64,000 nucleotides of DNA from Streptomyces violaceoruber (lineage in GTDB: Bacteria > Actinomycetota > Actinomycetes > Streptomycetales > Streptomycetaceae). Below, piece after piece: positions 35,684-64,000 of this stretch. Under the pieces are notes generated by a model. That model ran no database searches and had not been told where the DNA came from. It worked only from the letters and a program-made list of their open reading frames with translations. The DNA is taken from positions 3,534,001 to 3,598,000 of the forward strand of contig NZ_CP137734.1 in the NCBI RefSeq assembly GCF_033406955.1, in the 5' to 3' direction. Position 1 is the stretch's first letter. Every line of letters starts with the position of its first letter. The translations under genes and the position numbers were made by a program.

Positions 35684-35720
35684 GGCTCCACAGAACGGAC
35701 AGAAAGGGAATGGTAAATCG

Positions 35721-36326
35721 ATGCCCAGCTTCTCGCTGGCCGTTCCGGATTCCTGGTGGGAATTTGACATACGCCCGGAGGGGCGTGAGGCCACGGTACG
35801 AACAATGGTCGACGAACGTGTCCGGGAGACACCGGAGTTGGCCCCCTACCGCGCCGACCTGACCGCCATGCTCCGGAAGATGGCCAAGGACGCCCACGAC
35901 TCCGGTGCCCTCTACCTGGGCTGCATGGCGGAGAACTTCGACGGTGTCCCGCTCGCCGCGACCGTCACCGTGTCCGTGCTCGGCGCCAAGAACAAGCAGG
36001 GGGTCGCTCTGTCCACCGACCCCCGGGCCATCGCCGACAGCCTGCGTACGATCACCGCGCGGCGTGAAGGCGACGCCTGGCGCAAGGTGACGACCGTCGA
36101 CATTCCCGAAGTGGGCCCGGCCGCGCGGACGTACGGCGTGGAGGACGTGCCCGTGGCGCCGGGTGACAGTCGTACCCTGCGTATGGCGCTGACACAGACG
36201 TACATCCCCGTCCCGGGAACCACCGAGCAGGTCGTCCTCGTCTCCGGAGCCAGCCCGGTGCTGGACCTCGCCGAGGCGTTCCACGACATCTTCGACGCTG
36301 TGACCGGCACGTTCCGTTTCGTCTGA
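35721..36326 (+). CDS. About 200-residue soluble partner of WXG module A
   Basis: A 201-residue protein starting at ATG 35721. The N-terminus is FSLAVPDSWWEFDI (a strand-turn typical of Mog1/PsbP-like folds) and the C-terminus is TYIPVPGTTEQVVLVSG then DIFDAVTGTFRF. The same beginning and end recur in the proteins at 37342 and 60584 and more weakly at 36740, 56755 and 59919. No secretion signal. Possibly a cytosolic chaperone or adaptor of the WXG proteins, comparable in position to EspG of mycobacterial ESX systems, though not recognisably EspG by sequence. Confidence 0.65.
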   Translation: MPSFSLAVPDSWWEFDIRPEGREATVRTMVDERVRETPELAPYRADLTAMLRKMAKDAHDSGALYLGCMAENFDGVPLAATVTVSVLGAKNKQGVALSTDPRAIADSLRTITARREGDAWRKVTTVDIPEVGPAARTYGVEDVPVAPGDSRTLRMALTQTYIPVPGTTEQVVLVSGASPVLDLAEAFHDIFDAVTGTFRFV

Positions 36327-36348
36327 CCCGCAGAGAGGACTTCGGGCC

Positions 36349-36684: not shown

Positions 36685-36739
36685 CGGGCGTCGACGTCCC
36701 GGTCGACCGGTCGCAGGCGGCGCCCACCTGCCTTCCGTG

Positions 36740-37345
36740 TCACATGTGCAGTGTCCCCGCGATGGTGTCCACGATGCTCTCCAGTGGCTCGTCCAGGACC
36801 GGTTCCGTCCAGGAGACCAGGAGGGTGATGGCCGCGTCCGTCGTCGCGGGGCGGACGGCGTAGAAGAGGGTGTGGACCACCGGGCGGGGGCCGAGGAGGC
36901 GTTTCCTCTCCTCGATGAGGTTCTGGCGGATGCGGACCGCGTCGCCCAGGGGAAGGCCCACCTCGCGGACGTCGGGTTCGCCGAAGTCCCTCGCCGTCAT
37001 GTGCTCGGTGAGAAGCGGGAGGGTGACCTCCGGGAACGTGGCGTCCGGATGGATCGCGTCGAGTTCGAGGACGGCCGCCACCGTCTGGTGGCCGCTGAGG
37101 TACCAGCCGAAGGCGCCCAGCGGTTCGCGGGTACGGCTGTCGGCCGCGGCACGCTTGAGGTCGCGGGCCAGGAGACGGGCGTTGCCCTTCTCGCCGTCGC
37201 GTGCGTACCGTTCGACCAGCTCCCCGGCCTGGTGCCTGGCCCAGTAGTCGAGGTCGATGGTCCCGGCGACGGGGAACGGCACCCAGTCCTCCGAGCACTC
37301 CAGCCCAAGGTTCGACAGGTCGTCGGCGGTCATGTCCGGGGTCAC
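36740..37345 (-). CDS. About 200-residue soluble partner of WXG module B (first type)
   Basis: A 201-residue protein of unknown function; GTG start at 37345 overlaps the upstream stop by 4 bp, with an in-frame ATG at 37333 as an alternative. Ends ITLLVSWTEPVLDEPLESIVDTIAGTLHM, matching the C-terminal pattern of the partner family (a beta strand, then D-I/F-A-G-T/S-L). Occupies the same last position in module B as a homologous type occupies in module D. Confidence 0.6.
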   Translation of the reverse strand: MTPDMTADDLSNLGLECSEDWVPFPVAGTIDLDYWARHQAGELVERYARDGEKGNARLLARDLKRAAADSRTREPLGAFGWYLSGHQTVAAVLELDAIHPDATFPEVTLPLLTEHMTARDFGEPDVREVGLPLGDAVRIRQNLIEERKRLLGPRPVVHTLFYAVRPATTDAAITLLVSWTEPVLDEPLESIVDTIAGTLHM

Positions 37346-37986
37346 TCCGTCCAGGTCAGCGAGCCGGCGATCGCGTCGAAGAGGCCGGCCATCGCGTCGG
37401 CGATCGGCTCCAGGGGTGTGGAGAAGGTGAGCAGCAGGTACGCCGTCGTGCCGGGGACGGGGAGGTGGTATTCGACCGAGACGGAGGCATGGGCTGCATG
37501 GGGGGCGTCCGGGCCGTTCTCGCCCGGCTGCCGGGTGAGTCTGCGGACCCGTACGGCCGTGCCCGCGGTCAGTTCCTCGACGGCGATCTCGGGCACCGGC
37601 GTGCCTGCGTTCCCGCTCCCGGCCTCCGTCGCCTCCGCGTCCTCGGCGAGGACGCGTGCCAGGTCCTCCGGCGGGAGCGGTTCCGCGTGGCGCAGGGGCG
37701 CCAGGGTGACGAGGAGCGAGGCGGGGATGGTGAGGGGGCCGGCCGCCTGGAGGCTCAGGTACAGCTCGATCCCGCCGCCGCGGTACGCCTTGGCGGCCCG
37801 GCGCCGCAGGTCGCCGCGCAGCTCCTCCTTGAGGTGCGGCGCGTTGTCGATGCCGCGGAACTGGCGTTCCACCAGTGCGTCGATGGAGTCGTCCCGCTGG
37901 TCGGGGTCGAGCAGGATCCGGAACCAGCCCTCGGGCAGCAGCAGACGGTAGTCGGCAGGGGGCGTGGCGCTTTCGGTGCGCGTCAT
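37342..37986 (-). CDS. About 200-residue soluble partner of WXG module B (second type)
   Basis: A 214-residue protein, ATG 37986. The opening PPADYRLLLPEGWFRILLDP is almost the same as PPDDYRLLVPRDWFRIDL of the 193-residue protein at 60584, and both end with a PGTTAYLLLTF/PGGAGYILLSF strand plus AGSLxW. The two are clear paralogues. Predicted alpha/beta, no signal peptide. A PsbP/Mog1-like fold is my inference from the start and end motifs; the role beside WXG proteins is unknown. Confidence 0.65.
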   Translation of the reverse strand: MTRTESATPPADYRLLLPEGWFRILLDPDQRDDSIDALVERQFRGIDNAPHLKEELRGDLRRRAAKAYRGGGIELYLSLQAAGPLTIPASLLVTLAPLRHAEPLPPEDLARVLAEDAEATEAGSGNAGTPVPEIAVEELTAGTAVRVRRLTRQPGENGPDAPHAAHASVSVEYHLPVPGTTAYLLLTFSTPLEPIADAMAGLFDAIAGSLTWTE

Positions 37987-49067: not shown

Positions 49068-51431
49068 ATGAGACGGGGGCGTGGAGCGGCAGGTGCCGGA
49101 GCCGGTGCTCTGCTGGGCGGGGTGCTCGCGCCGCTGACCGAGCACCTCGGTTCGTCGCTCACCGACGGGGCGGCCGGGCAGCCCTGGGTCGCCTGGTCGT
49201 TGTTCGTCCTGCTGTGTGTCCTGGGCGGAGTGCTCGGCACATTCTTTCCTTCGAGCGGTGGCACCACCGCGGACGCCCCGCCTCCGCTCGCCCCCGGGCC
49301 CACCGAACCGGTCACCGGCGCGACGACCACCTCGCTGCGCCCGCCCCGTATCGAACGGCGCCTGCGCGGCCGGGAGGCGGAACTGGAGCGGCTCACCGCC
49401 TTGCTGCGCGACCCGGCGGAGAAGTTTGCGGTCGTCTGCGGGGTGGGCGGCGTCGGCAAGACCACGCTGGCAGCCGCCGTGGCCGCGCGGGCCGAAGCCG
49501 AGGGCTGGTCGGTCTTCTGGACCCGGTGGCGCGACCCCGGCACGACCGCCGACGACATGGTCAGAGTCGCGCTGGCCTGCGGGATGCCCGAAGAGAGTGT
49601 CCGGGCCGCCCGGTCCGGGCACGACAGCCTCCCGGATGCCGTGTGGCGGTACCTGGCAGGGCGCCGAAAATGGCTCGTGGTCCTCGACAACGCCGACGAG
49701 ACCGAACGCCTGGGCGACGCGTCCGAGCCGGTCGCCCACTACCGAGGCTGGGTCCGACCGGACGGCCGCGGACTGCTGTTGGTGACCAGCCGCGACACCA
49801 GCGCGCAGACCTGGGGGCCCGCTGCCGACATCCTGCGGCTCGACCCCCTCGACACCGCCTCTGGTGGCCGGGTCCTGCTGGACTCCGCACCCGGCGCGGG
49901 CAGTCACGAGGAGGCGATGGCGCTCGCCGGCCGGCTTGGCGGCCTGCCCCTCGCGCTCCAGGCCGCCAGTCGCTACGTGGGGGCCGCGACGAGCCGTCAC
50001 CGTGACTTCGCCGCCTACCGGGAGGCACTGGACCGGGAGGCGGAGCTGCTCGTCGGCACGGACCCGTCGGAGGCGCGCGATCCGGCCGTGGCCCGCACGT
50101 TCTTGCGCCACACCTGGGAACTGTCCCTTGACCAGCTCGACAGCGAGGGCCTGCCACTGGCCCGCCCCCTGCTGCGGCAGCTGGCCCTCTACGGGCCCGC
50201 CGCCATACCGCCCGTACTCGTCACGCCCCGGCTGATGACCACGGCGGTGGGCCGTTCAGTGAGCGCCGGGGAGGTCGACCGCGCCCTCGCCGCGCTGGAG
50301 CGCTTCGGGCTGCTCGGCACCGAATCCGAGGTGCCGGGCTCCGTCCTGCTCCATCCTCTGGTCCGCGAGATGAGCGCCCTGGCCCTGCGGTCGGACTCCG
50401 GCGCGGACCTCGACCGCTGTGTCCGCGCCCGGGCGGATGCCCTCGCCACGGCGGTGACCGGATTACCTGAAGGGCTGCCCGGCTGGCCCACGGCTCGGCT
50501 GCTGGCCCAGCACGCGCCGCTGCTGCTGTCCGCGCCGCGGACCGTCCCACTCACGGAGGCGGCAGCGGTCGTCGACCGGCTCGGGGACGTGCTCGGCGAC
50601 TCGGGCGACTACGCTCTGCAACGCGTGGTCCGCCAGGCCGTGCTCGCCCGGCGCGAGCACGAGCTGGGGCCAGACCACCCCGACACGCTTCTGTCGCGCA
50701 ACCACGTCGCCAACAGCGTGCTGAGTCTCGGGCACCATACCCAGGCACTCGCCGCCCACCGAACGGTGCTGGCCGCCCGCGAGCGCGTGCTCGGCCCCCG
50801 CCACCCCGACACCCTGGTGAGCCGGAACAACGTGGGTTTCGTCTGCGAGCTGCTTGGTGACTACGAGGAAGCCCAGGCGCTGCACGAGCACACCCTGGCC
50901 GACCGGCTCACGGTTCTGGGCCCCGACCACCGGCACACCCTGGTCAGCAGACAGAATCTCGCCAACTCCATCGACGGCCGGGGCGACCACCTGCTGGCCG
51001 TCAGCCTGCACCGGGAGGTCCTCGCCGACCGGCTCCGACTCCTGGGCCCGGACCACCGGGACACCCTCGCCAGCCGGAGCCATGTCGCCGAGTCGCTAAG
51101 CCGGTGCGGCGAACACGCCCGCGCGCTGGAACTGCACGGACAAGTACTGGCCGACCGTACGCGCGTCATGGGCCCCGACCACCCCTACACGCTGCTCAGC
51201 GGTCATCAGCTCGCCAGGGCGCTCAGCGACGCGGGTGACCACGCCGGTGCGGCGGACCGCTACGAACAGGTGCTCGCCCAGCGGCGGCGGGTGCTGGGCC
51301 CCGACCACCCCGACACTCGGGCCACCGAGCAGGGGCTCGCTCTCTGCCAGACGGAGCGCGCGGCCCGAGACCGGTCGGCGGCGGCATCCCGGGGGATTGG
51401 CCGGCGGGGCCGTGTCAGAACCCGACGATAA
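49068..51431 (+). CDS. Membrane-anchored NB-ARC/TPR STAND NTPase
   Basis: A 787-residue protein, ATG 49068. N-terminal hydrophobic segments (about 9-24 and 41-60), a Pro/Thr linker, then an NB-ARC domain with Walker A GVGGVGKTT (125-133), Walker B KWLVVLDNADE (about 205-215), LLLVTSRD and GLPLAL. The C-terminal part (about 510-765) is a series of TPR/kinesin-light-chain-type repeats marked by LGPDHPDT-like motifs roughly every 42 residues. Such STAND proteins are signalling switches, some in phage defence. Codon 466 is TTA (50463-50465), implying bldA dependence. Confidence 0.9.
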   Translation: MRRGRGAAGAGAGALLGGVLAPLTEHLGSSLTDGAAGQPWVAWSLFVLLCVLGGVLGTFFPSSGGTTADAPPPLAPGPTEPVTGATTTSLRPPRIERRLRGREAELERLTALLRDPAEKFAVVCGVGGVGKTTLAAAVAARAEAEGWSVFWTRWRDPGTTADDMVRVALACGMPEESVRAARSGHDSLPDAVWRYLAGRRKWLVVLDNADETERLGDASEPVAHYRGWVRPDGRGLLLVTSRDTSAQTWGPAADILRLDPLDTASGGRVLLDSAPGAGSHEEAMALAGRLGGLPLALQAASRYVGAATSRHRDFAAYREALDREAELLVGTDPSEARDPAVARTFLRHTWELSLDQLDSEGLPLARPLLRQLALYGPAAIPPVLVTPRLMTTAVGRSVSAGEVDRALAALERFGLLGTESEVPGSVLLHPLVREMSALALRSDSGADLDRCVRARADALATAVTGLPEGLPGWPTARLLAQHAPLLLSAPRTVPLTEAAAVVDRLGDVLGDSGDYALQRVVRQAVLARREHELGPDHPDTLLSRNHVANSVLSLGHHTQALAAHRTVLAARERVLGPRHPDTLVSRNNVGFVCELLGDYEEAQALHEHTLADRLTVLGPDHRHTLVSRQNLANSIDGRGDHLLAVSLHREVLADRLRLLGPDHRDTLASRSHVAESLSRCGEHARALELHGQVLADRTRVMGPDHPYTLLSGHQLARALSDAGDHAGAADRYEQVLAQRRRVLGPDHPDTRATEQGLALCQTERAARDRSAAASRGIGRRGRVRTRR

Positions 51432-52621: not shown

Positions 52622-53293
52622 GTGAAGCGCCGCTCTTTGCCCGTTGCTGCCGCGCTCGCCGCCTCAGCCGCCTTGCTGCTGACGGCCTGCGGGGGCGGGG
52701 ACGACAAGTCCAGCGACAACGACAAGATCGCGGGAGCCGACCAGGGGACGGCGACTCCGAAGGAGTCCGTGAAGCCATCGATGGCACCGGCGGAGGACAA
52801 TCCGGACGGCGTCGACGTGTCTCTCCCCAAGGACATGAACCTGGTCTTCGACTGGGACAAGCCGAAGGACGAGAACGAAGCGGCCGCGATGGAGGATGCG
52901 GCGAACTACATCCGCGCGATCTATCGGGGCGTCGACAAGCGCACGGCCAAGGACGCCGCCGTGGCCGCATACGCCACCGGCGACGGGCTGCACTACGCCG
53001 AGACGCAGATCAACAGCCGCATCGACGGCGGATGGACTTCGACCGGCACCCGCCGTCACTACGACGTCTCCACTCGATCCGCCTCCAACGGCAACTCGGT
53101 GGAGGTCGCCTTCTGCGTGGACTCCAGCAAGTTCTACGGGAAGGAGGTCAAGACCGGGAAGGTCCTCAAGAGCGAACCGAGCATCGCCGACTTCGACCAC
53201 TTCGAAATCATCATGGTCAAGTACCCCACGGCCGAACACCTCTGGCAGGCCTCCAAGGTGTTCGTCGAGACGAAGGCGAAGCAGTGCCAGTGA
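52622..53293 (+). CDS. Lipoprotein of WXG module C
   Basis: A 223-residue lipoprotein, GTG 52622 with GGGGAG 6 bases upstream. Signal peptide with lipobox LLLTACGGG, a charged Ser/Asp/Lys linker, then DVSLPKDMNLVFDW, MEDAANYIRAI and KEVKTGKV, all matching the lipoprotein at 29870. Paralogue of unknown function. A truncated third relative is at 57652. The following exported-protein gene begins inside its stop (GTGA). Confidence 0.85.
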   Translation: MKRRSLPVAAALAASAALLLTACGGGDDKSSDNDKIAGADQGTATPKESVKPSMAPAEDNPDGVDVSLPKDMNLVFDWDKPKDENEAAAMEDAANYIRAIYRGVDKRTAKDAAVAAYATGDGLHYAETQINSRIDGGWTSTGTRRHYDVSTRSASNGNSVEVAFCVDSSKFYGKEVKTGKVLKSEPSIADFDHFEIIMVKYPTAEHLWQASKVFVETKAKQCQ

Positions 53294-54375
53294 AGGGGGT
53301 AGCGCGTACGGCACTGGGCGCCGGCACGGCAGCACTGATACTGGCCTTCGGCACTGTCGTACTCGGTGCGCCGGTCCACGCCGCGGAACCGACGGCGAAC
53401 GACCAGGGCGCCGGCACCAAAGAGGAGGGCGGCCGCAAGGATTCCGGCATCTACGCCGCCGTCCGCATCCAGTACTCCGGATCCGTCGCCCCGAACGGCG
53501 GCAAGGGAAACGTGACGTCCGCCGACGTCGACTGGACTCCCCCGCCCTGCTGGTACGCCCCCTACCTCGGCGCCAAGGACTTCAAGAAGACGATGTCCGC
53601 CGAGATAGAGGAGGCCGCGAGCGCGCCCGGCATGACCGGGACCCCCGCTGCGGCGATCGGCCAGACGAAGGCGCACTACGAGGACGAGTACGGCTGGACG
53701 GACACCCCCGGTTACAAGGACTACAACGTCGCCAAGGACGGCGAGGGCATGTTCTGGGCCGGCGTCGAGAATCCCAACGAGCCCGACTTCCTCAAGCGGA
53801 ACTCCTGCACCGACCTCCCGTTCTGGGTCGACAACGGCGAGGCCCCGCCGCCCCAGTACGAGGAGGCCATCACCCCGGAGATACTCGCCGCCCTCGCGTA
53901 CCAGCACATGGAGCTTCCCGGCACCGAGGTCACTCTCGCCCCCGCCCAGACCACGAAGGTGAACCTGCCGACCTGGGCCTGGCTCGACAAGGCCGACTTC
54001 CACGAGGTCCAGGCCACGGCCGCCATCGCCGCCCCGGGCTTCGCCCTCACGGCGACGACCACCGCCAAACCCGTGTCCCTCAAGCTGGAGCCGGGCACTC
54101 CGGACGCCGTGACCTACCCGGCCTCCGGCGAGTGCACGATCAACGACGACGGCTCCATCGGCGAGCCCTATGCCAGGGGCAACGCAGACCGGACCCCGCC
54201 CTGCGGCGTCAAGTACCTCCGCTCCTCCGGAGACGGCACCTTCGACCTCCAGGCCACCATCACCTGGGAGATCGCCTGGACCGGCACCGGTGGCGCGGGC
54301 GGCGACCTCCCCGACGGCACCTTCGAGAACGGACAGGCCGTCACGGTGCAGGAAATCCAGTCGATCAACCGATGA
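53290..54375 (+). CDS. Exported protein of WXG module C (paralogue of 30532-31641)
   Basis: A 361-residue secreted protein, GTG 53290. Signal peptide with core GAGTAALILAFGTVVLG and cleavage after PVHA near residue 32. Blocks shared with the module A protein: PPCWYAPYLG, PGYKDYNVAKDGEGMFW, VNLPTWAWLDK, ASGECTINDDGSIGEPY, TPPCGVKYLR and a C-terminal VQEIQSINR. The conserved cysteines suggest disulfides. No enzyme motif recognised. Followed 22 bp later by the module's WXG100-like gene. Confidence 0.82.
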   Translation: MKGVARTALGAGTAALILAFGTVVLGAPVHAAEPTANDQGAGTKEEGGRKDSGIYAAVRIQYSGSVAPNGGKGNVTSADVDWTPPPCWYAPYLGAKDFKKTMSAEIEEAASAPGMTGTPAAAIGQTKAHYEDEYGWTDTPGYKDYNVAKDGEGMFWAGVENPNEPDFLKRNSCTDLPFWVDNGEAPPPQYEEAITPEILAALAYQHMELPGTEVTLAPAQTTKVNLPTWAWLDKADFHEVQATAAIAAPGFALTATTTAKPVSLKLEPGTPDAVTYPASGECTINDDGSIGEPYARGNADRTPPCGVKYLRSSGDGTFDLQATITWEIAWTGTGGAGGDLPDGTFENGQAVTVQEIQSINR

Positions 54376-55408: not shown

Positions 55409-56758
55409 ATGAGTTCCGAAAAATACCCGAATCTGGGGTTCGATCCAGCTCCCGGCGATCTTGAGGCCGTCCGGGACCTGGTGAAGGCGGTGGGCCGTGT
55501 CACCAGTGGCAGCGACACGGCCCAGACGGAGCTGAGCAAGATGGGAACGGTGGACGGAATTTGGGCGGGCAAGGCCGCCACGTCGTTCCAGGACACCTAC
55601 TCACCCGTTCCTCCGTACCTGAAGAAGGCGCTGGGGTCGCTGGACACCGCGCACCGGGCGCTCAGCGGCTGGGAAACGCAACTGGACGGATTCCAGACCA
55701 GGGCGCGAAAGCTGGAGGAAGAGGCGGCGGAAGCCACTAGGAAGGTCAACTCCGCACAGTCAGCGGTGAATTCGCTGCCCTCGTCCGCCGAGGGGCTGTC
55801 GGACGCGGACGAGAAGAAGCACGAGAAGGACGCCAAGGAGAAGAAGAAGTCCCTGGAGACCGCCACCGGCGAACTGACCGCGATCCGCAGCCGGGCGCAC
55901 TCGCTCCAGAGCGAGCACGGACAGGCAGCGGCAGACGTCACGCGTCTGGTCAAAGGTGCCGCGGACGACGCGCCGCCCGAGCCCGGCTGGTTCGAGGAAG
56001 CGCTGGACGCGGTGGGAGACCTGCTCTCGGACGCCTGGGACACCATCACGGACCCGAACTTCTGGAAGCTGATCGGCGACGTGCTGGCGGACATCGCGAT
56101 GGTCGTCGGCGTTCTCGCGATCTTCTTCTCCGGTCTCGGTGTGGCCGCGTTCATCATCGCGGGGCTGGCGCTCGCCTTCCACCTGGCCGCCAAGGCCGGC
56201 GGGGCCGACGTCACCTGGGAGACCATCGCGTGGGACGCCGTCGGTGTGTTCGCCGGCGGCCTCAGCCTGGCCGGCGCCCGGCTCGCCCAGTCCGGCCGCG
56301 CCCTGGTCAACGCCGGCCGGGAGCTGCGGCTGTCCTCCGGCTTCATGAAGGCACTCGGCAATGTCCGGTTCGGCAACCTCCTCAACGGCCTGCGCGGACT
56401 TCCCAGCGGTGTCGCCAACTCCGCACGGGGGCTGGGCATGGCGGGCAAGGGCTGGTCGTTCGTCGCTGCCGGCACCGCCGTCGACAAGGCGGCGACGTGG
56501 ACCGGTGCCGCGCTGGCGATCGGCTCCAACATGCACAACGGCACGTGGGACCAGGGGCGGTGGACGGACGGCGAATTCAAGATCGGTGACATACCGGTCG
56601 TGGGGCCGTTCATGGACTACTTCGGTGCCACCGACGGCGGCGAGGTCATGGCGCCCGGGCCGGCGTCCCCCACCTTCGACACGCAGACCGCCCTCAGCTC
56701 GTCTGGCAACACCTTCACCAAGCACCTCGACCCCTCGCAGATGGGTACGGCCGCATGA
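55409..56758 (+). CDS. WXG-domain effector-like protein, module C
   Basis: A 449-residue protein, ATG 55409. DPAPGDLEAVRDLV and IWAGKAATSF (WxG 52-54) open a long helical domain with a coiled coil (about 95-185, very Lys/Glu-rich). Hydrophobic segments are at about 220-260 (LADIAMVVGVLAIFFSGLGV). The C-terminus is Gly-rich, ending in DGGEVMAPGPAS with no recognised enzyme domain. Type VII polymorphic-protein architecture; a toxin tip is absent or very small. Overlaps the next gene by 4 bp. Confidence 0.7.
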   Translation: MSSEKYPNLGFDPAPGDLEAVRDLVKAVGRVTSGSDTAQTELSKMGTVDGIWAGKAATSFQDTYSPVPPYLKKALGSLDTAHRALSGWETQLDGFQTRARKLEEEAAEATRKVNSAQSAVNSLPSSAEGLSDADEKKHEKDAKEKKKSLETATGELTAIRSRAHSLQSEHGQAAADVTRLVKGAADDAPPEPGWFEEALDAVGDLLSDAWDTITDPNFWKLIGDVLADIAMVVGVLAIFFSGLGVAAFIIAGLALAFHLAAKAGGADVTWETIAWDAVGVFAGGLSLAGARLAQSGRALVNAGRELRLSSGFMKALGNVRFGNLLNGLRGLPSGVANSARGLGMAGKGWSFVAAGTAVDKAATWTGAALAIGSNMHNGTWDQGRWTDGEFKIGDIPVVGPFMDYFGATDGGEVMAPGPASPTFDTQTALSSSGNTFTKHLDPSQMGTAA

Positions 56759-57480
56759 GCGCGGTGTCCCACGGCCCGACCGATGACATCGAGCGCGGCG
56801 CGACCGCTCCGTTCCACTACGCCTTCCACCACGACGTTCCGGACGAGTTCGTCCGGCTCCCGGAACCCGCGGAGTCCGACGGCTGGCGCGAGGCCATGGC
56901 GGAACTGCTGCCGGGGGCGGACGCGGAGGCACGGGACGCCGCCAGCGAGGGCCTGCGCCGCCAGCTGCCACTGCTGAGCGCCAGGGATAACGTGCTCCTC
57001 ACCGCGATGTGCGTCGGCACGGAGGAAGTGGACGGCGGCGAGCGCCTGTCCATGGGCCTGCTCGCGGTCACCGTTCGCCCGAGCGAGCACAGCCCCGCCC
57101 GTCGGCTCTTCACCGCCGAGGGCATCTACCGGGCGACCGCCAAGAAGTTCTTCTCCCACGTCGCCGAGGACCGCCTGGAAGAGATCAGCTTCCCGCTGGG
57201 AGAGGGTCTGCAAGGGCCGCAGGACATGGTGCTGGCCACGAAGCTCCCGTGCGGCCCGGGTGTCATGTCGACGTCCCTGCGCACGCTGCGGCTGCCCCCG
57301 ATCGAGGCCGGGATCGCCGTACCGCCCCTTCCGATGGCAGCCCTGCAGCTGATCGTCCCGGCGCCGCACGGGTACTGCGTGTACGTCACCATCTCCACTC
57401 CGTCGGTCTTCCTGCTGGACTCCTACAGCGCACGCCTGGCCCACATCGCCCGCACGCTCGGATTCGGCGAGCCGACCTGA
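56755..57480 (+). CDS. Soluble partner of WXG module C
   Basis: A 241-residue protein, ATG 56755 (ATGA overlap with the effector-like gene). No signal peptide. It opens with AFHHDVPDEFVRLP and contains LTAMCVGTEEVDGGERLSMGLLAVTV and a late IVPAPHGYCVYVTISTPS strand, arranged as in the roughly 200-residue partner proteins of the other modules, but more divergent. Function unknown; a chaperone or adaptor role is inferred from the tight coupling. Confidence 0.6.
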   Translation: MSAVSHGPTDDIERGATAPFHYAFHHDVPDEFVRLPEPAESDGWREAMAELLPGADAEARDAASEGLRRQLPLLSARDNVLLTAMCVGTEEVDGGERLSMGLLAVTVRPSEHSPARRLFTAEGIYRATAKKFFSHVAEDRLEEISFPLGEGLQGPQDMVLATKLPCGPGVMSTSLRTLRLPPIEAGIAVPPLPMAALQLIVPAPHGYCVYVTISTPSVFLLDSYSARLAHIARTLGFGEPT

Positions 57481-57651: not shown

Positions 57652-57801
57652 GTGAAGCGCCACCCCATACCCGTTGCCATCCTGCTCGAGGCGGCAGGAC
57701 CGCCACTCACGGCCGGTGGCGACGAGGATCACGGATCCAGACCAGTGGCATGCACTGGCCTGCGCAGGACTCCACGGCGATCAGGGGGACAAGCGTCATG
57801 A
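57652..57801 (+). pseudogene. Remnant of a third lipoprotein gene
   Basis: Forty-nine codons from GTG 57652. The first 30 align with the start of the lipoprotein at 52622 (VKR, PVA, then LTAG instead of LLTACG), with scattered identity at DNA level after an almost perfect leader match. The lipobox Cys is lost and the rest of the roughly 220-residue protein and the paired exported protein are deleted. The frame ends by overlapping the ATG of the next gene (TGA at 57799-57801). It could still be translated and couple expression of 57798. Confidence 0.75.
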
Positions 57802-58109
57802 GCGACAGAACACGAGCAGATCTCGACATCATACGAGATTGCTCCGACTCACTGTTCCGAATACATCGCGAGTTCAAAGAGCACGGGAACCCCGCCGAGG
57901 AATACAGCGACGAGCTGGGCAGCAAGGACCTGCGTGACGTTTTTGGAGAGTTTTCAGACACCTGGAAGAAGACTCGAAAGAAACTCATGAAGGACATCGA
58001 GAACCTGGCGAAGTTCACCAAGACCGCGGCGGACACGTACGACGATGTCGATCACAAGCTTGCCGAGGCCCTCCGGGATGCCCGCAAGAAGTCGAAGGGG
58101 AAGAAGTGA
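57798..58109 (+). CDS. WXG100-like small helical protein, module D
   Basis: A 103-residue helical protein, ATG 57798 with GGGGGA 10 bases upstream. GEFSDTWKKTR gives Trp56; NPAEEYSDELGSKDL and DHKLAEALRDARKKSKGKK match the module B protein at 40729. The next gene overlaps by 4 bp (GTGA), exactly as in module B. Candidate type VII substrate or co-secretion partner. Confidence 0.72.
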   Translation: MSDRTRADLDIIRDCSDSLFRIHREFKEHGNPAEEYSDELGSKDLRDVFGEFSDTWKKTRKKLMKDIENLAKFTKTAADTYDDVDHKLAEALRDARKKSKGKK

Positions 58110-59311
58110 GTTCGCGGCCACGCGATTGGGAACCCCTCCACGACGGCGACCCCATACCCGGAGACCCCTACGAGGTTGCCGGACTCGGCAAGAAGCTCCG
58201 CAAGATGGCGGACGAGATCGACAAACAGTCTCGAAACATCAGAGCCCTGTCGTCCGTCGACGGATGGGACAGCGATGCCGGGCGCGCCTTTCACGAGATA
58301 GCGGACGGCGCGTCGGGTCGCCTCAAGCGAGCGTTCGATCGCTATGACGAAGCGGCCAAGGCGTTGGGCACGAAGGTTGTCGACGGCGAGGAATCAAAAG
58401 AGTACGCCAGCGAGTTGCACCGGGCTCAAAAGGTCGCGGACAAGGCTCTGCAGAAGTACCGCGAGGCGGAGACGGATCACAAAACCGCCATCGGCGACCT
58501 CAAGCAGTACGAAGGGACCGTTCCGTCACGCGACGACGTGACGGACCGCACTCGTCTCGAGAAGAAACGTGACGCCGCTATGGGTGTCATCCGCGAGTGC
58601 CACAGCGAAATCGGCCGAGCCAAGATCATACGTGACGACGCGGCGAAGGCAGCTGCCAAGCACATCAAGAACATCGTGCATCACGACGGCGTGCGCGATC
58701 CCGGCGGGATCATGAACTTCCTCGCCGACTGGGCCGACAGACTGTCCAACGTCTCAGCGATCCTGTCCGTACTGGCAGTTATCTGCGCCTTTGTGCCTCC
58801 ACTCCAGATACTGGCTCCGATCTTTGCGGGCCTGTCGGTCGTCACAAGCGCCCTGGCATTGGCAGGCCACATCTACGACATGACGGCGCGCGGGGGCAAG
58901 TTCAGCGCCTCACGACTGTTCTTCGACGCCTTGGGCGTTATGCCGGGGCTGGGAGCACTGAAGGGATTCAAGGCTCTCAAGGGACTGTCCAAGCTGCGCG
59001 GCCTACGATTCAGTGGCGGCGCCGCGTTGGAAGGTGTCGGCTTCAAGTTCTTCAACGGTATCGCCGTCAACACGGTGAACAAGATCCTCGTGAAGGCCGG
59101 GAAGCCGGTCATCGCGGGTGAGAAGCTCACCGCCGCCATCAAAACAGGCGGGTTCGCCAGCGCCATGGTGAAGATCTTCACTGGTCACGACGGCAAGGCG
59201 ACCGGCGACCCGGGAGACCCCGGAGTCCCGCCGAAGGTCACGCCCAGCCCCTCTCCCCAGCCGGCTCCCACGCCGTCGCCCGCACCCTTCCACACTGCCC
59301 TGGCCCGATAG
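58106..59311 (+). CDS. WXG-domain effector-like protein, module D
   Basis: A 401-residue protein, GTG 58106. N-terminus DPIPGDPYEVAGLGKKLRKM, then VDGWDSDAGRAF (Trp54; a WxxxxG variant), YDEAAKALGTKVVDG and ELHRAQKVADKAL, nearly the same as the module B protein at 39308. Hydrophobic segment at about 210-262. The C-terminus is a short Pro/Ser tail (VTPSPSPQPAPTPSPAP) and no toxin domain is seen. Possibly a structural or orphan member that lost its tip. Confidence 0.72.
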   Translation: MSSRPRDWEPLHDGDPIPGDPYEVAGLGKKLRKMADEIDKQSRNIRALSSVDGWDSDAGRAFHEIADGASGRLKRAFDRYDEAAKALGTKVVDGEESKEYASELHRAQKVADKALQKYREAETDHKTAIGDLKQYEGTVPSRDDVTDRTRLEKKRDAAMGVIRECHSEIGRAKIIRDDAAKAAAKHIKNIVHHDGVRDPGGIMNFLADWADRLSNVSAILSVLAVICAFVPPLQILAPIFAGLSVVTSALALAGHIYDMTARGGKFSASRLFFDALGVMPGLGALKGFKALKGLSKLRGLRFSGGAALEGVGFKFFNGIAVNTVNKILVKAGKPVIAGEKLTAAIKTGGFASAMVKIFTGHDGKATGDPGDPGVPPKVTPSPSPQPAPTPSPAPFHTALAR

Positions 59312-59343: not shown

Positions 59344-59922
59344 ATGCCGGCAGAAGACCAGGAACTCGGACCAGACGAGTACAAGGCCCGCGGCAACATC
59401 GTCAGGAAGATGGTGCCCGGCGAAGTACTGTTCCGCGTGCCGGAAGCGCGGGACCTGGCAATCTCCGAGGGAAGACGCCTGCACTACGACTTTCTTGATG
59501 ACGCAGCCGTCCTCAAGCTTTTGCGCCTTCGCCACCTGGACGACGTGAAGCTGCACAGCGCAGGAATGAAGCTGGGTATTCCTTCCGCGCTGATCATCGC
59601 AGCCGCGTTCGTCTACTGGGGCGGCTACGTCCAGTACTGGGAATCATCGAAGTCCCAGGCCATGTACTACGCGGCGTGCGGTGCGGTCCTTGCCCTCATG
59701 GTCCTGCTCTACGTCATCTCACTCACCCGGCACTGGGGAAACCGACCGCGGCAGAAAATGCGTGCCCGAGCGGCCGCCTACCGGAAGATCGCGCACGTCG
59801 CCGCGGAGCACGGCGCCGAGTTGCCCGGCTTCTACCCGCACTACGGCGCCTACCCCTTCGCCGCCACCTTCCACGCCGACGCGGCGGAACTGGAACTTCC
59901 CGACGGAGCGACCCCGCGATGA
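59344..59922 (+). CDS. Two-helix membrane protein of module D
   Basis: A 192-residue protein, ATG 59344 with AAGGAG upstream. Soluble N-terminus (1-75), two TM helices (about 78-95 and 106-126) and a soluble C-terminus with RAAAYRKIAHVAAEHGAELPGF. It sits where module B has a four-helix membrane protein, but I see no clear sequence relation. Stop overlaps the next start by 4 bp. Confidence 0.65.
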   Translation: MPAEDQELGPDEYKARGNIVRKMVPGEVLFRVPEARDLAISEGRRLHYDFLDDAAVLKLLRLRHLDDVKLHSAGMKLGIPSALIIAAAFVYWGGYVQYWESSKSQAMYYAACGAVLALMVLLYVISLTRHWGNRPRQKMRARAAAYRKIAHVAAEHGAELPGFYPHYGAYPFAATFHADAAELELPDGATPR

Positions 59923-60587
59923 CTACGGCCACCTCGGAGAACGGACTTGCCTCGGTGTCCGAGGGCGAGGCGGTCCACGTTCGCTGGATCATGCCCGAGG
60001 GCTTCTTCGAGTTGCCCATGGATGTGGAATCCATCGACGAACTCGCTGATGAGCTGATCTCTCTGGCCCAGCGGGTGATGCCGGACGCGCCCGAGAACAT
60101 GCAGTACCAGTGGGCCGCTCTCTGCGCGGGCAACTACGACGCCTTCGTCGAGGGCGGGATCCAGTACGCCGGATTCGTCATCACAGAAGTCGACGGCACA
60201 CGCTGCGCGGCCACGGTCCATGTCTCCATGACGGAGCTCGCGGACGAGGCCCGACTGCGCCCGATCCTTGCCACGGCCGGGGCGCTGCGTGACCTCGGTC
60301 AGGGCGAGGTCACGGAGATCGACCTTCCTTGCGGTCCCGCGGTGTCGTTGATCGGTGCCCGGCGGTCCGTCGTCGACGCGGCGCTCGCCCCTTCCGGGCA
60401 TGACGAACCGTTCTGGACGTCGTTCATCCAAGCTCACGTCCCCCTGCCCAACGGCACTGTCGTCGTGCTCGAAATGGTGACTCCGACGCAGGAAGGGTGG
60501 GACGTCTTCTCCGCCATGTTCGCCGGTATCCTCAAGTCCCTCTGCTTCTTCGACGACAAGGGCACGCCCGTGGGGCTCGGCACGTGA
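59919..60587 (+). CDS. Soluble partner of WXG module D (first type)
   Basis: A 222-residue acidic protein, ATG 59919. VRWIMPEGFFELPMD at the start and AHVPLPNGTVVVLEMVTP then FSAMFAGILKSLCFF at the end follow the partner-family pattern (strand-WF, PLP/PVPG strand, AGxxxSLxF). No signal peptide or membrane helix. Translationally coupled on both sides (ATGA before, GTGA after). Confidence 0.62.
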   Translation: MTTATSENGLASVSEGEAVHVRWIMPEGFFELPMDVESIDELADELISLAQRVMPDAPENMQYQWAALCAGNYDAFVEGGIQYAGFVITEVDGTRCAATVHVSMTELADEARLRPILATAGALRDLGQGEVTEIDLPCGPAVSLIGARRSVVDAALAPSGHDEPFWTSFIQAHVPLPNGTVVVLEMVTPTQEGWDVFSAMFAGILKSLCFFDDKGTPVGLGT

Positions 60588-61165
60588 CGACGACCCACCG
60601 AAGCCGGCCACCGGACGACTATCGGCTCCTCGTTCCTCGCGACTGGTTCCGCATCGACCTGATGGTCGACCGATGGCGACCTCAGCTGAAGAAGTTCGTC
60701 GACCAACAGGCAACACGCAGGCAGATGTCCACCGATGCCGGTCGCGAACTCTGGGCCTCCTTGCGTAACGCGGTGGAGACCGGTGTGTCCCAGGGAGCTC
60801 TGGAGCTCTACCTGCGAACGGATGTCGTCGCCGGTACGGGCGCCCCGGCGACTCTGATGGTCTCCCTGCTGCCCATGCGAGATGCGCTGCATGCCTCACC
60901 GGAAGAATTCGCCCAGGCCTTGCGGGGCCGGGAAGAGGGCGGCGCGACCGTCTCCGTCTCCAGCCTGCCGGCCGGATCCTGTGTACGCGTCTCCACGACG
61001 ACGGCACTTGATTACTACGTCGAGATGCCGGGTGGGGCGGGCTACATCCTGCTCTCGTTCACCGTTCCGCTGAGTGGTGTGGAAAGCCCCTTGGGCGAGC
61101 TGTGCGAGGCCATGGCCGGCTCCTTGCGCTGGATCCACAACGCCGCACCACAGGAACAGCGGTGA
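60584..61165 (+). CDS. Soluble partner of WXG module D (second type)
   Basis: A 193-residue protein, GTG 60584. PPDDYRLLVPRDWFRIDL, ALELYLRTDVVAGTGAPATLMVSLLPM and the final YILLSFTVP ... AMAGSLRW pair it unambiguously with the module B protein at 37342. The conserved order of B and D (WXG100-like, WXG long protein, membrane protein, then two soluble partners) supports duplication of a whole operon. Function unknown. Confidence 0.65.
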   Translation: MTTTHRSRPPDDYRLLVPRDWFRIDLMVDRWRPQLKKFVDQQATRRQMSTDAGRELWASLRNAVETGVSQGALELYLRTDVVAGTGAPATLMVSLLPMRDALHASPEEFAQALRGREEGGATVSVSSLPAGSCVRVSTTTALDYYVEMPGGAGYILLSFTVPLSGVESPLGELCEAMAGSLRWIHNAAPQEQR

Positions 61166-62112: not shown

Positions 62113-62415
62113 CTACTTGCTCCGCGCCTGCTTCGCCAGCTCGTCGTCGATCTGCTCGAACTTGTCGGCCGCCATGGTGAGGTAGTCGCCCATGCCGTCG
62201 AGGCCGTCGAGGGTGTCCTTGGCGCCGCGGGTGAACTCGTCGAAGTTGTCGTCGAAGGCCTTGGAGGACGACTTCGTGACGTAGCCCGACTCGACCAGGT
62301 TCGCGATGTACTTGCGGAGGCCGTCGAGCTTCTCCTGGAGCTTTTCCTTCTCCTTCACGACATGCTTGGCGGCATCCCGCATGTCCTGATATGTGATGTC
62401 AAGGTCTTTGGGCAT
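62113..62415 (-). CDS. EsxA-like WXG100-family protein without the Trp
   Basis: A 100-residue helical protein, ATG 62415 with AGGAAG upstream. Helix 1 (about 8-42) and helix 2 (about 54-95, FDDNFDEFTRGAKDTLDGLDGMGDYLTMA) flank a turn VESGYVT where WXG proteins have WxG. There is no Trp in the whole protein. The C-terminal FEQIDDELAKQ resembles the YxxxD/E-type secretion signal with Phe for Tyr. Divergent from eccC, which supports a role as a type VII substrate or structural partner. Confidence 0.8.
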   Translation of the reverse strand: MPKDLDITYQDMRDAAKHVVKEKEKLQEKLDGLRKYIANLVESGYVTKSSSKAFDDNFDEFTRGAKDTLDGLDGMGDYLTMAADKFEQIDDELAKQARSK

Positions 62416-62490
62416 GAAGCCGCTTCCTCTCACAACGCCGCAGGGCCAACCCCCGTGGCTCCTCGTGTGCGGATCGAACCGGCGCACCGG

Positions 62491-62521
62491 TCACGCCGGT
62501 CGTATGACACGACCGGTGTGA
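62491..62521. promoter_or_regulatory. Large inverted repeat between the EsxA-like gene and eccC
   Basis: Thirteen-base arms (TCACGCCGGTCGT / ACGACCGGTGTGA, one mismatch) around a 5-base centre, 75 bases upstream of the EsxA-like start. Its position between divergent genes suggests a shared operator; a stem-loop in the EsxA-like leader is an alternative. Confidence 0.5.
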
Positions 62522-62700
62522 TCGTCCGCTCTGAGGCAGCAGCTTACGGGGGAGGCCAGTGGTGTCACATCCCTGCGTTGCCAACGGGAACGTCCGGTCA
62601 CCGCCCTGTTGCCGGACCGCGACACCCAGCGGATATCGTCGCCTGGACTGTGAGCCGTGGTGTGGAAGCGGCCGCAGGGGCTCGCCTGGGGAGGACAAGC

Positions 62701-64000
62701 GTGCGACTGACTCTGACCGTCGTGGATCCGTACGGCGGGGGCTCCGCCGACGTCGTGCTCGACGCGGACCCCGAGTCCACCGTCGGGGACATCGCCGAGG
62801 AGCTGGCCAAGCAGGTCGGGGTCGCGGGCGCGCAGGTCATCCCCATCGGGCATCAGGGCCAGGCGGGTACCGGCGGTGCGCCGCTCGTCTACGTCGACGG
62901 GTACGCCGTCGATCCGTCCGCCACCGTCGTCGGGTCGCCGCTTCGCGAGGGCGCGGTCGTCAGTCTGCAGGACCCGTCCGGGTGCCTGCCCGGTGAGCCC
63001 ACCGGGCTCGTGGAGTTGCGGGTCGTGGGCGGGCCCGGTGCCGGGTTCGTGCACCGGCTCGGGGTGGGGAAGTACGACATCGGCAGCGGGCCGGCCGCGT
63101 ACGTCCGGATCGAGGACCCCGAGGTCGACGCCCGTGCCCTGACCCTCTCCGTCGCCACCGACGGGACCTGCAAGGTCGCCGTGCACTCGGACAAGGAGGG
63201 CGTCACCCTCGACGGGGAGTCCGTCCAGGAACGGGACGGCGACGACTGGCCGCTCGGGGCGCAGATAGCGGTCGGGAACTCGCTCGTCGAACTGGCCCGG
63301 TACGCGCCGCCCAACGCGGCACTCAAGTGGTCCGAGGACGGGGTGGGGCTGGACTACAACCGGCCGCCCCGGCTGCGGCCGGCCGAGCGGCAGACCAACT
63401 TCCGGCTGCCCTCACCGCCCCGCGACTACGAGGCCCGGCCGCTGCCCTGGCTGATGGCGTTGACGCCGCTCGTCGGTGCCGTGGTCGCCGTGATGGTGTT
63501 CGGGCGCTGGTACTACCTGATCATGGCCGGTCTCAGCCCGATCCTCCTGTTCGCCAACTACTTCAACGACAAGAAGCACGGGCGCAAGTCCCACGCCAAG
63601 CAGGTCAAGGAGTACGAGGAGCAGAAGGCGCGGATCGAGAAGGACGCGCAGGCCGCGCTGGTCGCCGAGCGGGACGACCGGCGGCAGGCCATTCCCGATC
63701 CGGCGGTCGTGCTGTCCGTGGCGACCGGGCCCCGGACCCGGCTGTGGGAGCGGCGGCGCACCGACCGTGATCACCTGCTGCTGCGGGTGGGGACCGGACA
63801 ACTGCCCTCCGAGGTCGTGCTCGACGACCCCGAGCAGGACGACCACCGGCGCCAGGTCACCTGGAAGATCGAGGACGCGCCCGTCGCGCTGTCGCTGCGC
63901 ACCCTCGGGGTCGTCGGCATCGCGGGGCCCGGGGACTCGGCCCGGTCGCTGGGGCGGTGGGCGGTCGCACAGACCGCCGCGCTGCACAGCCCGATGGACG
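62701..64000 (+). CDS. eccC: Type VII secretion protein EccC, N-terminal part (runs off the right edge)
   Basis: The first 433 codons of a FtsK/SpoIIIE-type ESX ATPase, GTG 62701 with GGGAGGAC upstream. Residues 1-92 look like a YukD/ubiquitin-like domain (LTLTVVDPYGGGSADVVLDADPE begins it). Residues 103-200 resemble an FHA domain (GGPGAGFVHRLGVGKYDIGS, VTLDGESV), and two TM helices at about 250-286 precede the cytoplasmic EccC region (RRDDR, then RTRLWERRRTDRDHLLLRVG). The ATPase domains lie beyond the window. This is the motor expected to export the WXG proteins encoded upstream. Confidence 0.9.
   Translation, partial: MRLTLTVVDPYGGGSADVVLDADPESTVGDIAEELAKQVGVAGAQVIPIGHQGQAGTGGAPLVYVDGYAVDPSATVVGSPLREGAVVSLQDPSGCLPGEPTGLVELRVVGGPGAGFVHRLGVGKYDIGSGPAAYVRIEDPEVDARALTLSVATDGTCKVAVHSDKEGVTLDGESVQERDGDDWPLGAQIAVGNSLVELARYAPPNAALKWSEDGVGLDYNRPPRLRPAERQTNFRLPSPPRDYEARPLPWLMALTPLVGAVVAVMVFGRWYYLIMAGLSPILLFANYFNDKKHGRKSHAKQVKEYEEQKARIEKDAQAALVAERDDRRQAIPDPAVVLSVATGPRTRLWERRRTDRDHLLLRVGTGQLPSEVVLDDPEQDDHRRQVTWKIEDAPVALSLRTLGVVGIAGPGDSARSLGRWAVAQTAALHSPMD

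What the first reader, a model, noticed from the sequence alone, without database searches (positions are those of the whole stretch)
62113..64000. EccC with ubiquitin-like and FHA domains beside a Trp-less EsxA
The N-terminus joins a YukD-like domain and an FHA-like domain to the EccC membrane anchor in one chain; in Firmicutes the ubiquitin-like protein is separate. The FHA part could connect secretion to Ser/Thr kinases. The divergent WXG100 protein lacks any Trp.
Basis: partly seen in the sequence, partly recalled or inferred. Interest (0 to 1): 0.52.

Follow-up and report, generated by a model that had tools for sequence, protein, structure and literature searches.

The report
Secretion ATPase with built-in ubiquitin-like domain
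A Streptomyces protein-export motor carries at its front end a ubiquitin-like piece that other bacteria make as a separate protein, followed by a phosphate-reading domain that seems to have lost its reading site.

Summary
The window edge cuts a 1525-aa EccC/EssC-type ATPase gene (start 62701; end beyond the window). Residues 1-92 are a YukD/EccD-type ubiquitin-like domain (profile-profile match 97.1%, reversed controls at most 1.1%); residues ~101-203 are an FHA fold; a membrane region and FtsK-type ATPase follow. The layout recurs across Actinomycetota. The protein misses the curated EccCa, EccCb and EssC cut-offs; EssB was found in 0 of 14 carrier genomes, EccB in 6 of 14. So it is a separate actinobacterial T7SS variant, near the published T7SSd, which lacks a known ubiquitin-like protein. 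I propose the Ubl works in cis.

The kinase idea is not supported: all four phosphothreonine contacts are lost here and in 53 of 54 Streptomyces sequences aligned, and the adjacent kinase neighbours mqnA in at least 11 of 15 Streptomyces genomes lacking this ATPase. The EsxA is Trp-less in 80 of 80 relatives, a clade trait.

Side lead: ~200-aa proteins beside candidate substrates are predicted to have the Mog1/PsbP fold of T6SS Eag chaperones.

The parts
62701..64000 (+). T7SS-type ATPase (TsxC/EssC/EccC superfamily), N-terminal 433 of 1525 residues; gene ends at window coordinate 67278, beyond the window
   Evidence: FtsK_SpoIIIE E 5e-63 in the full protein
62701..62976 (+). ubiquitin-like (YukD/EccD-type) domain, residues 1-92
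63001..63309 (+). FHA-fold domain, residues 101-203, without the canonical phosphothreonine contacts
   Evidence: fold; residues:
63439..63558 (+). transmembrane region, residues ~247-286 (one segment passes a mean KD of 1.6)
   Evidence: hydropathy; profile match of the surrounding region to YukB, EccC3 and EccC5
62113..62415 (-). EsxA-like WXG100 protein, 100 aa, no Trp, turn motif SGYVT, C-terminal FEQID
   Evidence: PF06013 64.6 bits over cut-off 27.3; divergent relative 244-679 bases from the ATPase start in 80 of 80 named Streptomyces loci
57798..58109 (+). second small helical Esx-like protein beside a candidate substrate
   Evidence: weak PF10824 hit, 21.8 v cut-off 23.5 bits; relatives in 63 of 80 loci
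58106..59311 (+). candidate T7SS substrate: T7SS_signal domain plus hydrophobic segments
   Evidence: PF21725 45.7 bits over cut-off 27; relatives in 75 of 80 loci; hydropathy
55409..56758 (+). candidate T7SS substrate: T7SS_signal domain plus one hydrophobic segment
   Evidence: PF21725 27.8 bits over cut-off 27; relatives in 63 of 80 loci
59919..60587 (+). Mog1/PsbP-fold protein, possible Eag-like chaperone
   Evidence: AF2 pLDDT 88; VIA Z 11.8 EagT6, 11.6 SciW
60575..61165 (+). relative of the Mog1/PsbP-fold protein, overlapping the previous gene by 13 bases
   Evidence: alignment A4; profile hit E 8e-56 (this sequence is one of the rows of A4)
56755..57480 (+). third relative of the Mog1/PsbP-fold family, overlapping the end of the 55409 substrate gene
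   Evidence: profile hit E 1.4e-31 (this sequence is one of the rows of A4)

Best explanation
This is the core ATPase of an actinobacterial type VII secretion variant that is neither T7SSa nor T7SSb. Shown by sequence: one chain carries a YukD/EccD-type ubiquitin-like domain, an FHA-fold domain, a transmembrane region and FtsK-type NTPase domains; the first NTPase keeps Walker A GTTGSGKSE and a DE Walker B, while the two C-terminal ones read GRS where GK[ST] is usual (read off P0001). Inferred: the Ubl does in cis what free EsaB/YukD, or the Ubl of EccD, does in trans: it docks on the stalk or first ATPase module of the same or the next subunit and steadies or gates hexamer assembly. The degenerate FHA acts as a phosphorylation-independent docking face, as reported for EssC FHA domains with EssB. 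The Trp-less EsxA, whose C-terminus keeps a [FY]xxxD-like motif, binds the last ATPase modules and triggers export of the helical T7SS_signal proteins encoded nearby.
For: Ubl homology with reversed controls; YukD over cut-off in one member, L084's ATPase; ubiquitin, FHA and YukB/EccC chains all found by one N-terminal profile; an alignable N-terminus in 15 non-Streptomyces loci. Fails EccCa, EccCb and EssC cut-offs, as do five further members, while the same genome's T7SSa EccC passes both Ecc models. YukC/EssB in 0 of 14 carrier genomes, EccB in 6 of 14. No YukD domain over cut-off in 10 of 24 carriers, so there the fused one is the only candidate. Divergent EsxA within 1 kb in 80 of 80 loci. 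T7SS_signal relatives in 75 of 80.
Against: The Ubl part of the AF2 model is only moderately confident (block pLDDT 57-77, loop 31-42; whole model 68.9, pTM 0.60), and the PDB fold searches were filled by the FHA domain, so the Ubl fold was not tested on its own. The window protein itself has no Pfam YukD hit. No binding, secretion or assembly data exist here. The cis-docking step rests on analogy with ESX systems, where the EccD Ubl meets EccC (stated in PMC11217815 and PMC9600267); but a passage of PMC9600267 says that YukD of B. subtilis did not interact with the YukB ATPase in a two-hybrid assay and bound YueC instead. The other components of the channel remain unidentified.
Confidence: 0.68

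Rival explanations
1. It is simply a T7SSa EccC or a T7SSb EssC with a diverged N-terminus, working with the usual partner subunits encoded elsewhere in the genome.
For: The ATPase part matches EccCa (422 bits), EccCb (324 bits) and EssC (562 bits) clearly, and this genome has EccD-like and EccB genes near 2.32-2.33 Mb.
Against: All three curated cut-offs are missed; 8 of 14 carrier genomes have no EccB match and 14 of 14 no YukC/EssB match; own EccC and this protein are far apart in the ATPase tree, though on a long branch.
Confidence: 0.12
2. The FHA part still reads phosphothreonine, written by the adjacent Ser/Thr kinase, and so couples export to signalling.
For: A Pkinase-domain gene lies directly downstream, convergent (L009:11339-13129). 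Relatives in other actinobacteria keep at least 3 of 4 contact residues in 13 of 15 cases, and one such ATPase (L100) lies in a run with PP2C, kinase and FHA genes.
Against: All four contact residues are lost in this protein, and in 53 of 54 Streptomyces sequences; 30 of 30 best class-level hits keep at most one. The kinase relative is next to mqnA in at least 11 of 15 genomes lacking the ATPase. Kinase proximity does not follow FHA state in the other lineages: a kinase lay within 6 kb in 5 of 20 non-Streptomyces loci with, and 1 of 3 without, the residues, where 8 of these 23 states were scored by eye.
Confidence: 0.1
3. The protein is a true member of the published T7SSd, whose Ubl was overlooked because it is fused to TsdC.
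For: T7SSd is the only variant in PMC11217815 besides T7SSa that is reported from Actinomycetota; it has an FHA-bearing ATPase and no separate Ubl was found.
Against: TsdC FHA domains are said to keep the phosphothreonine motif, which is lost here; TsdH and TsdI were not identified (not searched by profile); no named Olsenella or Bifidobacterium sequence could be fetched, and the paper's main text does not mention Streptomyces.
Confidence: 0.3

Closest known systems
T7SSd TsdC (Garrett, Higginson and Palmer 2024, PMC11217815; parts 1-5 of 7 of the text read)
   Same: Actinomycetota; EssC-like ATPase with an N-terminal FHA part; WXG100 partner; no free-standing ubiquitin-like gene
T7SSb EssC/YukB
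   Same: FHA-type N-terminus ahead of the TM hairpin; best PDB match of the N-terminal profile is YukB 9qks, positions 141-421, E 1.7e-29; FHA without pThr site, as reported for EssC
   Different: EssC is reported to have two FHA domains and a separate EsaB; here the first domain is Ubl; no YukC/EssB match; under the TIGR03928 cut-off
T7SSa EccC with EccD
   Same: FtsK-type ATPase; a YukD-type domain fused into the machine (on EccD)
   Different: Ubl sits on the ATPase, not on EccD; EccCa/EccCb cut-offs missed; no EccB match in 8 of 14 carriers
T6SS Eag chaperones EagT6 and SciW (for the neighbouring ~200-aa proteins)
   Same: Predicted Mog1/PsbP fold, Z 11.8 and 11.6; beside helical substrates with hydrophobic segments
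   Different: No Pfam sequence match; T7SS context; PsbP, LpqN and the immunity protein Tsi3 share the fold, so function is open

Membership tests
YukD/EsaB ubiquitin-like family | sequence homology to the YukD domain | tested here: met
   hhalign 97.1%, E 6e-11 against 21 EccD domains, reversed controls 0.4-1.1%; PF08817 over cut-off in one homologue, under it in two. The window protein itself has no Pfam YukD hit
YukD/EsaB ubiquitin-like family | beta-grasp fold | tested here: inconclusive
   AF2 gives strand-strand-helix-strand-strand-strand at block pLDDT 57-77; the fold searches did not test this part
FHA domain | FHA fold | tested here: met
   3gqs Z 15.4, rmsd 1.9, 98 aligned
FHA domain | phosphothreonine contacts Arg/Ser/His/Asn | tested here: not met
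   Ser, Asp, Ala, Glu in the window protein
T7SSa EccC | over TIGR03924 and TIGR03925 cut-offs | tested here: not met
   422.4 v 509.15 and 324.2 v 346.55; own-genome EccC 966.7 and 930.6
T7SSa EccC | works with EccB | tested here: not met
   EccB match in only 6 of 14 carrier genomes; in the own genome it lies over 1.2 Mb away. Presence tested, not interaction
T7SSb EssC | over TIGR03928 cut-off | tested here: not met
   561.7 v 778.4
T7SSb EssC | partner EssB/YukC | tested here: not met
   PF10140 in 0 of 14 carrier genomes at E 1
T7SSd TsdC | actinobacterial FHA-bearing ATPase without separate Ubl gene | tested here: met
   the own genome's only YukD over cut-off lies in a 597-residue frame at the T7SSa locus, read as EccD
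T7SSd TsdC | conserved FHA phosphothreonine motif | tested here: not met
T7SSd TsdC | TsdD kinase, TsdH and TsdI encoded alongside | tested here: inconclusive
   a kinase is adjacent but looks like inherited synteny; TsdH and TsdI were not searched by profile
T7SSd TsdC | same clade as Olsenella/Bifidobacterium TsdC | not testable with these tools
WXG100 | over PF06013 cut-off | tested here: met
   64.6 v 27.3 bits; TIGR03930 just missed, 44.1 v 44.85
WXG100 | WXG motif | tested here: not met
   no Trp in 80 of 80 relatives; G[YF][VT]T at the turn in 80 of 81 rows, window included
Eag/DUF1795 chaperones (59919-60587) | Mog1/PsbP/DUF1795 fold | tested here: met
   predicted model, pLDDT 88.3; Z 11.8 EagT6, 11.6 SciW
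Eag/DUF1795 chaperones (59919-60587) | sequence match to a known family | tested here: not met
   no Pfam family at E 0.5 for a fragment lacking the first 4 residues

The most novel reading that the evidence does not exclude
Actinomycetota carry a widespread T7SS class in which the near-universal ubiquitin-like component is built into the ATPase. This would explain the reported absence of that component from T7SSd, and would mean the whole class (T7SSd included) has an in-cis Ubl, a pseudo-FHA branch and a pThr-reading branch, and uses Eag-fold chaperones, known from T6SS, for its membrane-segment-bearing substrates.
Probability: 0.35. Interest if true: 0.7.

Novelty: new variant of a known kind. 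Interest (0 to 1): 0.5.

Why it matters
The role of the T7SS ubiquitin-like component is described as unclear in PMC11217815, which found it in all its new subtypes except T7SSd; published contacts differ between systems (with the ATPase in ESX, with YueC but not the ATPase in B. subtilis by two-hybrid, PMC9600267 passage). A natural fusion to the ATPase points to where it works and makes that testable by deleting one domain of one protein. The two FHA states (contacts kept in 13 of 15 other-lineage rows of A1, lost in the 21 Streptomyces rows) offer a natural comparison between phospho-controlled and uncontrolled export. If the Mog1/PsbP-fold neighbours are chaperones, T6SS and T7SS would share a chaperone fold for membrane-segment effectors.

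Tried and rejected
Kinase control through the FHA: rejected for this protein; across lineages kinase distance did not follow FHA state (the eight states of L213-L220 were entered by eye and are used nowhere else; distances are to the best-matching ATPase segment).

Loss of the FHA site as a Streptomyces-only event: my first reading. One search showed that 19 non-Streptomyces genomes among the 30 best class-level hits have also lost it. That sample is chosen by score, hence biased to window-like sequences.

EccC/EssC assignment by bit score: EssC is the highest single model, but EccCa and EccCb together exceed it, so scores alone do not place the protein; only the missed cut-offs are used. No Firmicutes EssC could be put in the tree, so its place relative to T7SSb is not settled. 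The tree is a quick search with long branches flagged (L011, L101, L097, L088).

T7SSd test: L213 looked like a small-genome candidate but is 36% GC with unclear affiliation. Not usable as a T7SSd reference.

Fold search: the rows listed for the 213-residue model are FHA domains or proteins aligned through theirs; absence of ubiquitin there says nothing.

Plasmids: a first search with a small Esx-like protein found nothing.

Correction to my notes: the checkpoint entry gives 12 of 15 for the kinase-mqnA pair; that count included the own genome. The listing shows 11 of the 15 others.

Rows dropped: L071, L070, L081, L082, L085 and L101 were left out of A1 (start placed late, or architecture different); L137 and L123 (8807-9367) from A4; L080. 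A3 holds 53 of the 80 named loci. In one search, 34 of 38 loci gave a row (L214, L215, L216, L219 gave none, reason not found). In one search the E limit of 1e-20 also admits ordinary EccC, so 265 of 394 is an upper figure for this class.

Full report
What is there. The window (G000:C1:3534001-3598000 of an 8.63 Mb single-contig genome) ends inside a 1525-residue ATPase gene. The most likely start is the GTG at 62701 and the gene ends at window coordinate 67278. A named relative, Streptomyces coelicoflavus NBRC 15399, is 98% identical over residues 1-433. Divergently, a 100-residue WXG100 protein runs from 62415 to 62116, stop at 62113. Upstream lies an island of small Esx-like proteins, two proteins with Pfam's T7SS_signal domain, and several ~200-240 aa proteins without a Pfam match.

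The ubiquitin-like part. Pfam's YukD model does not hit the window protein itself. Four other lines agree that residues 1-92 belong to that family. (1) Profile-profile comparison of 36 N-termini with 21 EccD ubiquitin-like domains gives 97.1%, E 6e-11; the Streptomyces rows alone give 96.0% and the other rows alone 95.4%; four reversed controls give 0.4-1.1%, and the FHA part against EccD 1.0%. The FHA part against the Ubl part gives 21.6%, higher than the other controls but far below the match. (2) In a search of 30 genomes, PF08817 hits the N-terminus of a homologous ATPase over its curated cut-off (30.4 v 27 bits, positions 6-74 of 76) and two others below it (20.6 and 16.8 bits). (3) A profile of the 36 N-termini, searched against all PDB chain sequences, finds redesigned and natural ubiquitins within positions 13-79 (E 1e-7, 2e-6, 8e-5, the last without a stretch that passes alone), FHA domains at about 90-187, and YukB, EccC3 and EccC5 further on. 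(4) AlphaFold2 gives strands 2-8 and 15-21, helix 28-38, strands 63-65, 68-70 and 86-88, a beta-grasp order, but with modest confidence.

The FHA part. The fold is clear: 3gqs at Z 15.4, with GarA, OdhI and T3SS PscD/YscD behind it. The four residues that FHA domains use to hold phosphothreonine (motif recalled; columns set on the intact relative L094) read Ser, Asp, Ala, Glu. In A1, 21 of 21 Streptomyces rows keep at most one of four; 13 of 15 rows from other Actinomycetota keep at least three, the exceptions being L089 and L092. In A3, 53 of 54 rows keep none. Among the 30 best class-level hits all keep at most one, 19 of them from outside the genus. So this branch carries a pseudo-FHA, as has been reported for EssC of T7SSb (PMC11217815), while other branches appear able to read phosphothreonine.

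The kinase. The gene downstream and convergent is a Ser/Thr kinase (PF00069 120 bits). In 15 Streptomyces genomes chosen for lacking this ATPase, the best relative of the kinase lies beside mqnA in 11; the flanks held were 1.5 kb, so 11 is a lower bound. The ATPase therefore seems to have entered an existing kinase-mqnA neighbourhood. Over the broader set, a kinase lies within 3 kb in 6 of 26 Streptomyces loci.

Which family. The protein misses all three relevant NCBIfam cut-offs: EssC 561.7 v 778.4, EccCa 422.4 v 509.15, EccCb 324.2 v 346.55. Five further members (L084, L086, L094, L100, L089) also miss all three, whereas the T7SSa EccC of the same genome passes both Ecc models. In a tree of 51 ATPases built without the N-terminus, 26 Streptomyces rows form one side of a branch (SH-aLRT 99) and the own T7SSa EccC lies far off on a long branch. 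Of 14 genomes with this ATPase, none has a YukC/EssB match and 8 have no EccB match. Of 24 carriers searched, 10 have no YukD domain over cut-off, so the fused Ubl is the only candidate there.

Spread. With the N-terminal 380 residues as query, 26 of 61 genomes of the genus have a match at E 1e-35 or better (my count from the listing), and 52 of 296 phylum genomes have one at E 0.001, a limit that also admits ordinary EccC. A profile search of 394 class genomes lists places down to E 5e-94 before the listing is cut, most spanning positions 1-422 of the profile. Large plasmids of Embleya and S. clavuligerus carry relatives at 51% and 45% identity.

The Trp-less EsxA. All 80 named Streptomyces loci have the divergent EsxA, 244-679 bases from the ATPase start, and none of the 80 proteins has a Trp. 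The turn reads G[YF][VT]T in 80 of 81 rows, the window's included, in place of WXG. The window protein's C-terminus has an FEQID motif; 'E' and 'D' of it are kept in at least 90% of rows. A passage in PMC8401907 (found by term search) reports S. scabies EsxA and EsxB with FNG and FQA motifs, so absence of WXG is not new in the genus.

How it probably works. In T7SSb a free EsaB/YukD is essential; in T7SSa a ubiquitin-like domain on EccD meets EccC (both as stated in PMC11217815, read in parts). A Ubl tied to the ATPase N-terminus, beside the membrane anchor, would reach the same face in cis. Against this, a passage of PMC9600267 says that B. subtilis YukD did not interact with the YukB ATPase by two-hybrid but did with YueC. 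I propose that the fused Ubl steadies or gates the hexamer, that the pseudo-FHA docks a partner without phosphorylation, and that EsxA binding to the C-terminal modules starts export. Only the anatomy is shown here; each step of the mechanism is inference. That contrary passage made me lower my confidence from 0.70 to 0.68.

Relation to print. PMC11217815 defines T7SSc-j; T7SSd is the actinobacterial one, with an FHA-bearing ATPase and, to the authors' surprise, no ubiquitin-like protein. I read parts 1-5 of 7 of its text; its main text has no occurrence of Streptomyces. Searches for EccC with FHA and ubiquitin-like, Streptomyces with EssC, T7SSd, forkhead-associated with ubiquitin and fused and TsdC/TseC/TsxB listed no title or abstract start that reports an ATPase with a fused ubiquitin-like domain; of the papers listed there I opened PMC11217815 at length and PMC9600267 by passages, not the others. 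Subscription journals and most preprints are outside that library, and the supplements of PMC11217815 could not be read. Whether TsdC itself carries the fused domain could not be tested.

Side lead. The protein at 59919-60587 was modelled at pLDDT 88.3. Its structural relatives include BT_1490 (3hlz, Z 12.1), EagT6 (11.8), 3lyd (11.8), SciW (11.6), PsbP (11.1), LpqN (10.9) and Tsi3 (9.2). EagT6 and SciW are T6SS chaperones for membrane segments of effectors. The family is found at E 1e-5 in 25 of 61 Streptomyces genomes; by my count 20 of these are among the 26 with the ATPase, one more (G050) shows only a short ATPase match, and four (G007, G008, G026, G051) lack it. In the 80 loci, 75 of 100 such genes lie within 1.5 kb of a T7SS_signal substrate hit and on its strand; random placement upstream of the ATPase with random strand gives a mean of 29.5 and at most 42 in 500 draws. 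They could be chaperones or immunity proteins; lack of any obvious signal peptide in the sequences read favours the former slightly.

Noticed in passing
window 56755-57480, 59919-60587, 60575-61165; further profile hits at window 35715-36335, 36737-37249, 37345-37986: A family of ~200-240 aa proteins with a predicted Mog1/PsbP (Eag chaperone-like) fold, paired on the same strand with T7SS_signal substrates more often than random placement; two of the further hits hold an in-frame stop.
   Followed up: partly
L101:5636-9670 (-), genome 5.217-5.222 Mb: A paralogue with the same Ubl plus FHA N-terminus but with the four phosphothreonine residues intact by eye, then a long low-complexity linker and an FtsK-like C-terminus; hits of similar strength and extent, residues about 1-216, occur in many of the other genus genomes listed.
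   Followed up: partly
window 53146-54375 and a 44% identical copy at window 30385-31638: A ~400 aa family with a hydrophobic stretch near the N-terminus, in several copies in many genomes; matches at E 1e-60 or better in 15 of 61 genomes, 14 of which carry the ATPase and the 15th (G050) a short match to it.
   Followed up: partly
L213:7563-13837 (-): In a 36% GC actinobacterium a gene that looks by eye like a membrane Ser/Thr kinase overlaps the ATPase gene by one base, kinase first, although the FHA part there is degenerate.
   Followed up: no
L100:955-11530 (+): A run of RDD-FHA, PP2C phosphatase, FHA, Ser/Thr kinase and a further small gene leads into an ATPase of this class whose FHA keeps all four contact residues.
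   Followed up: no
window 49068-51431: A 787 aa protein with an AAA/nSTAND-like NTPase and many TPR repeats near the T7SS island.
   Followed up: no
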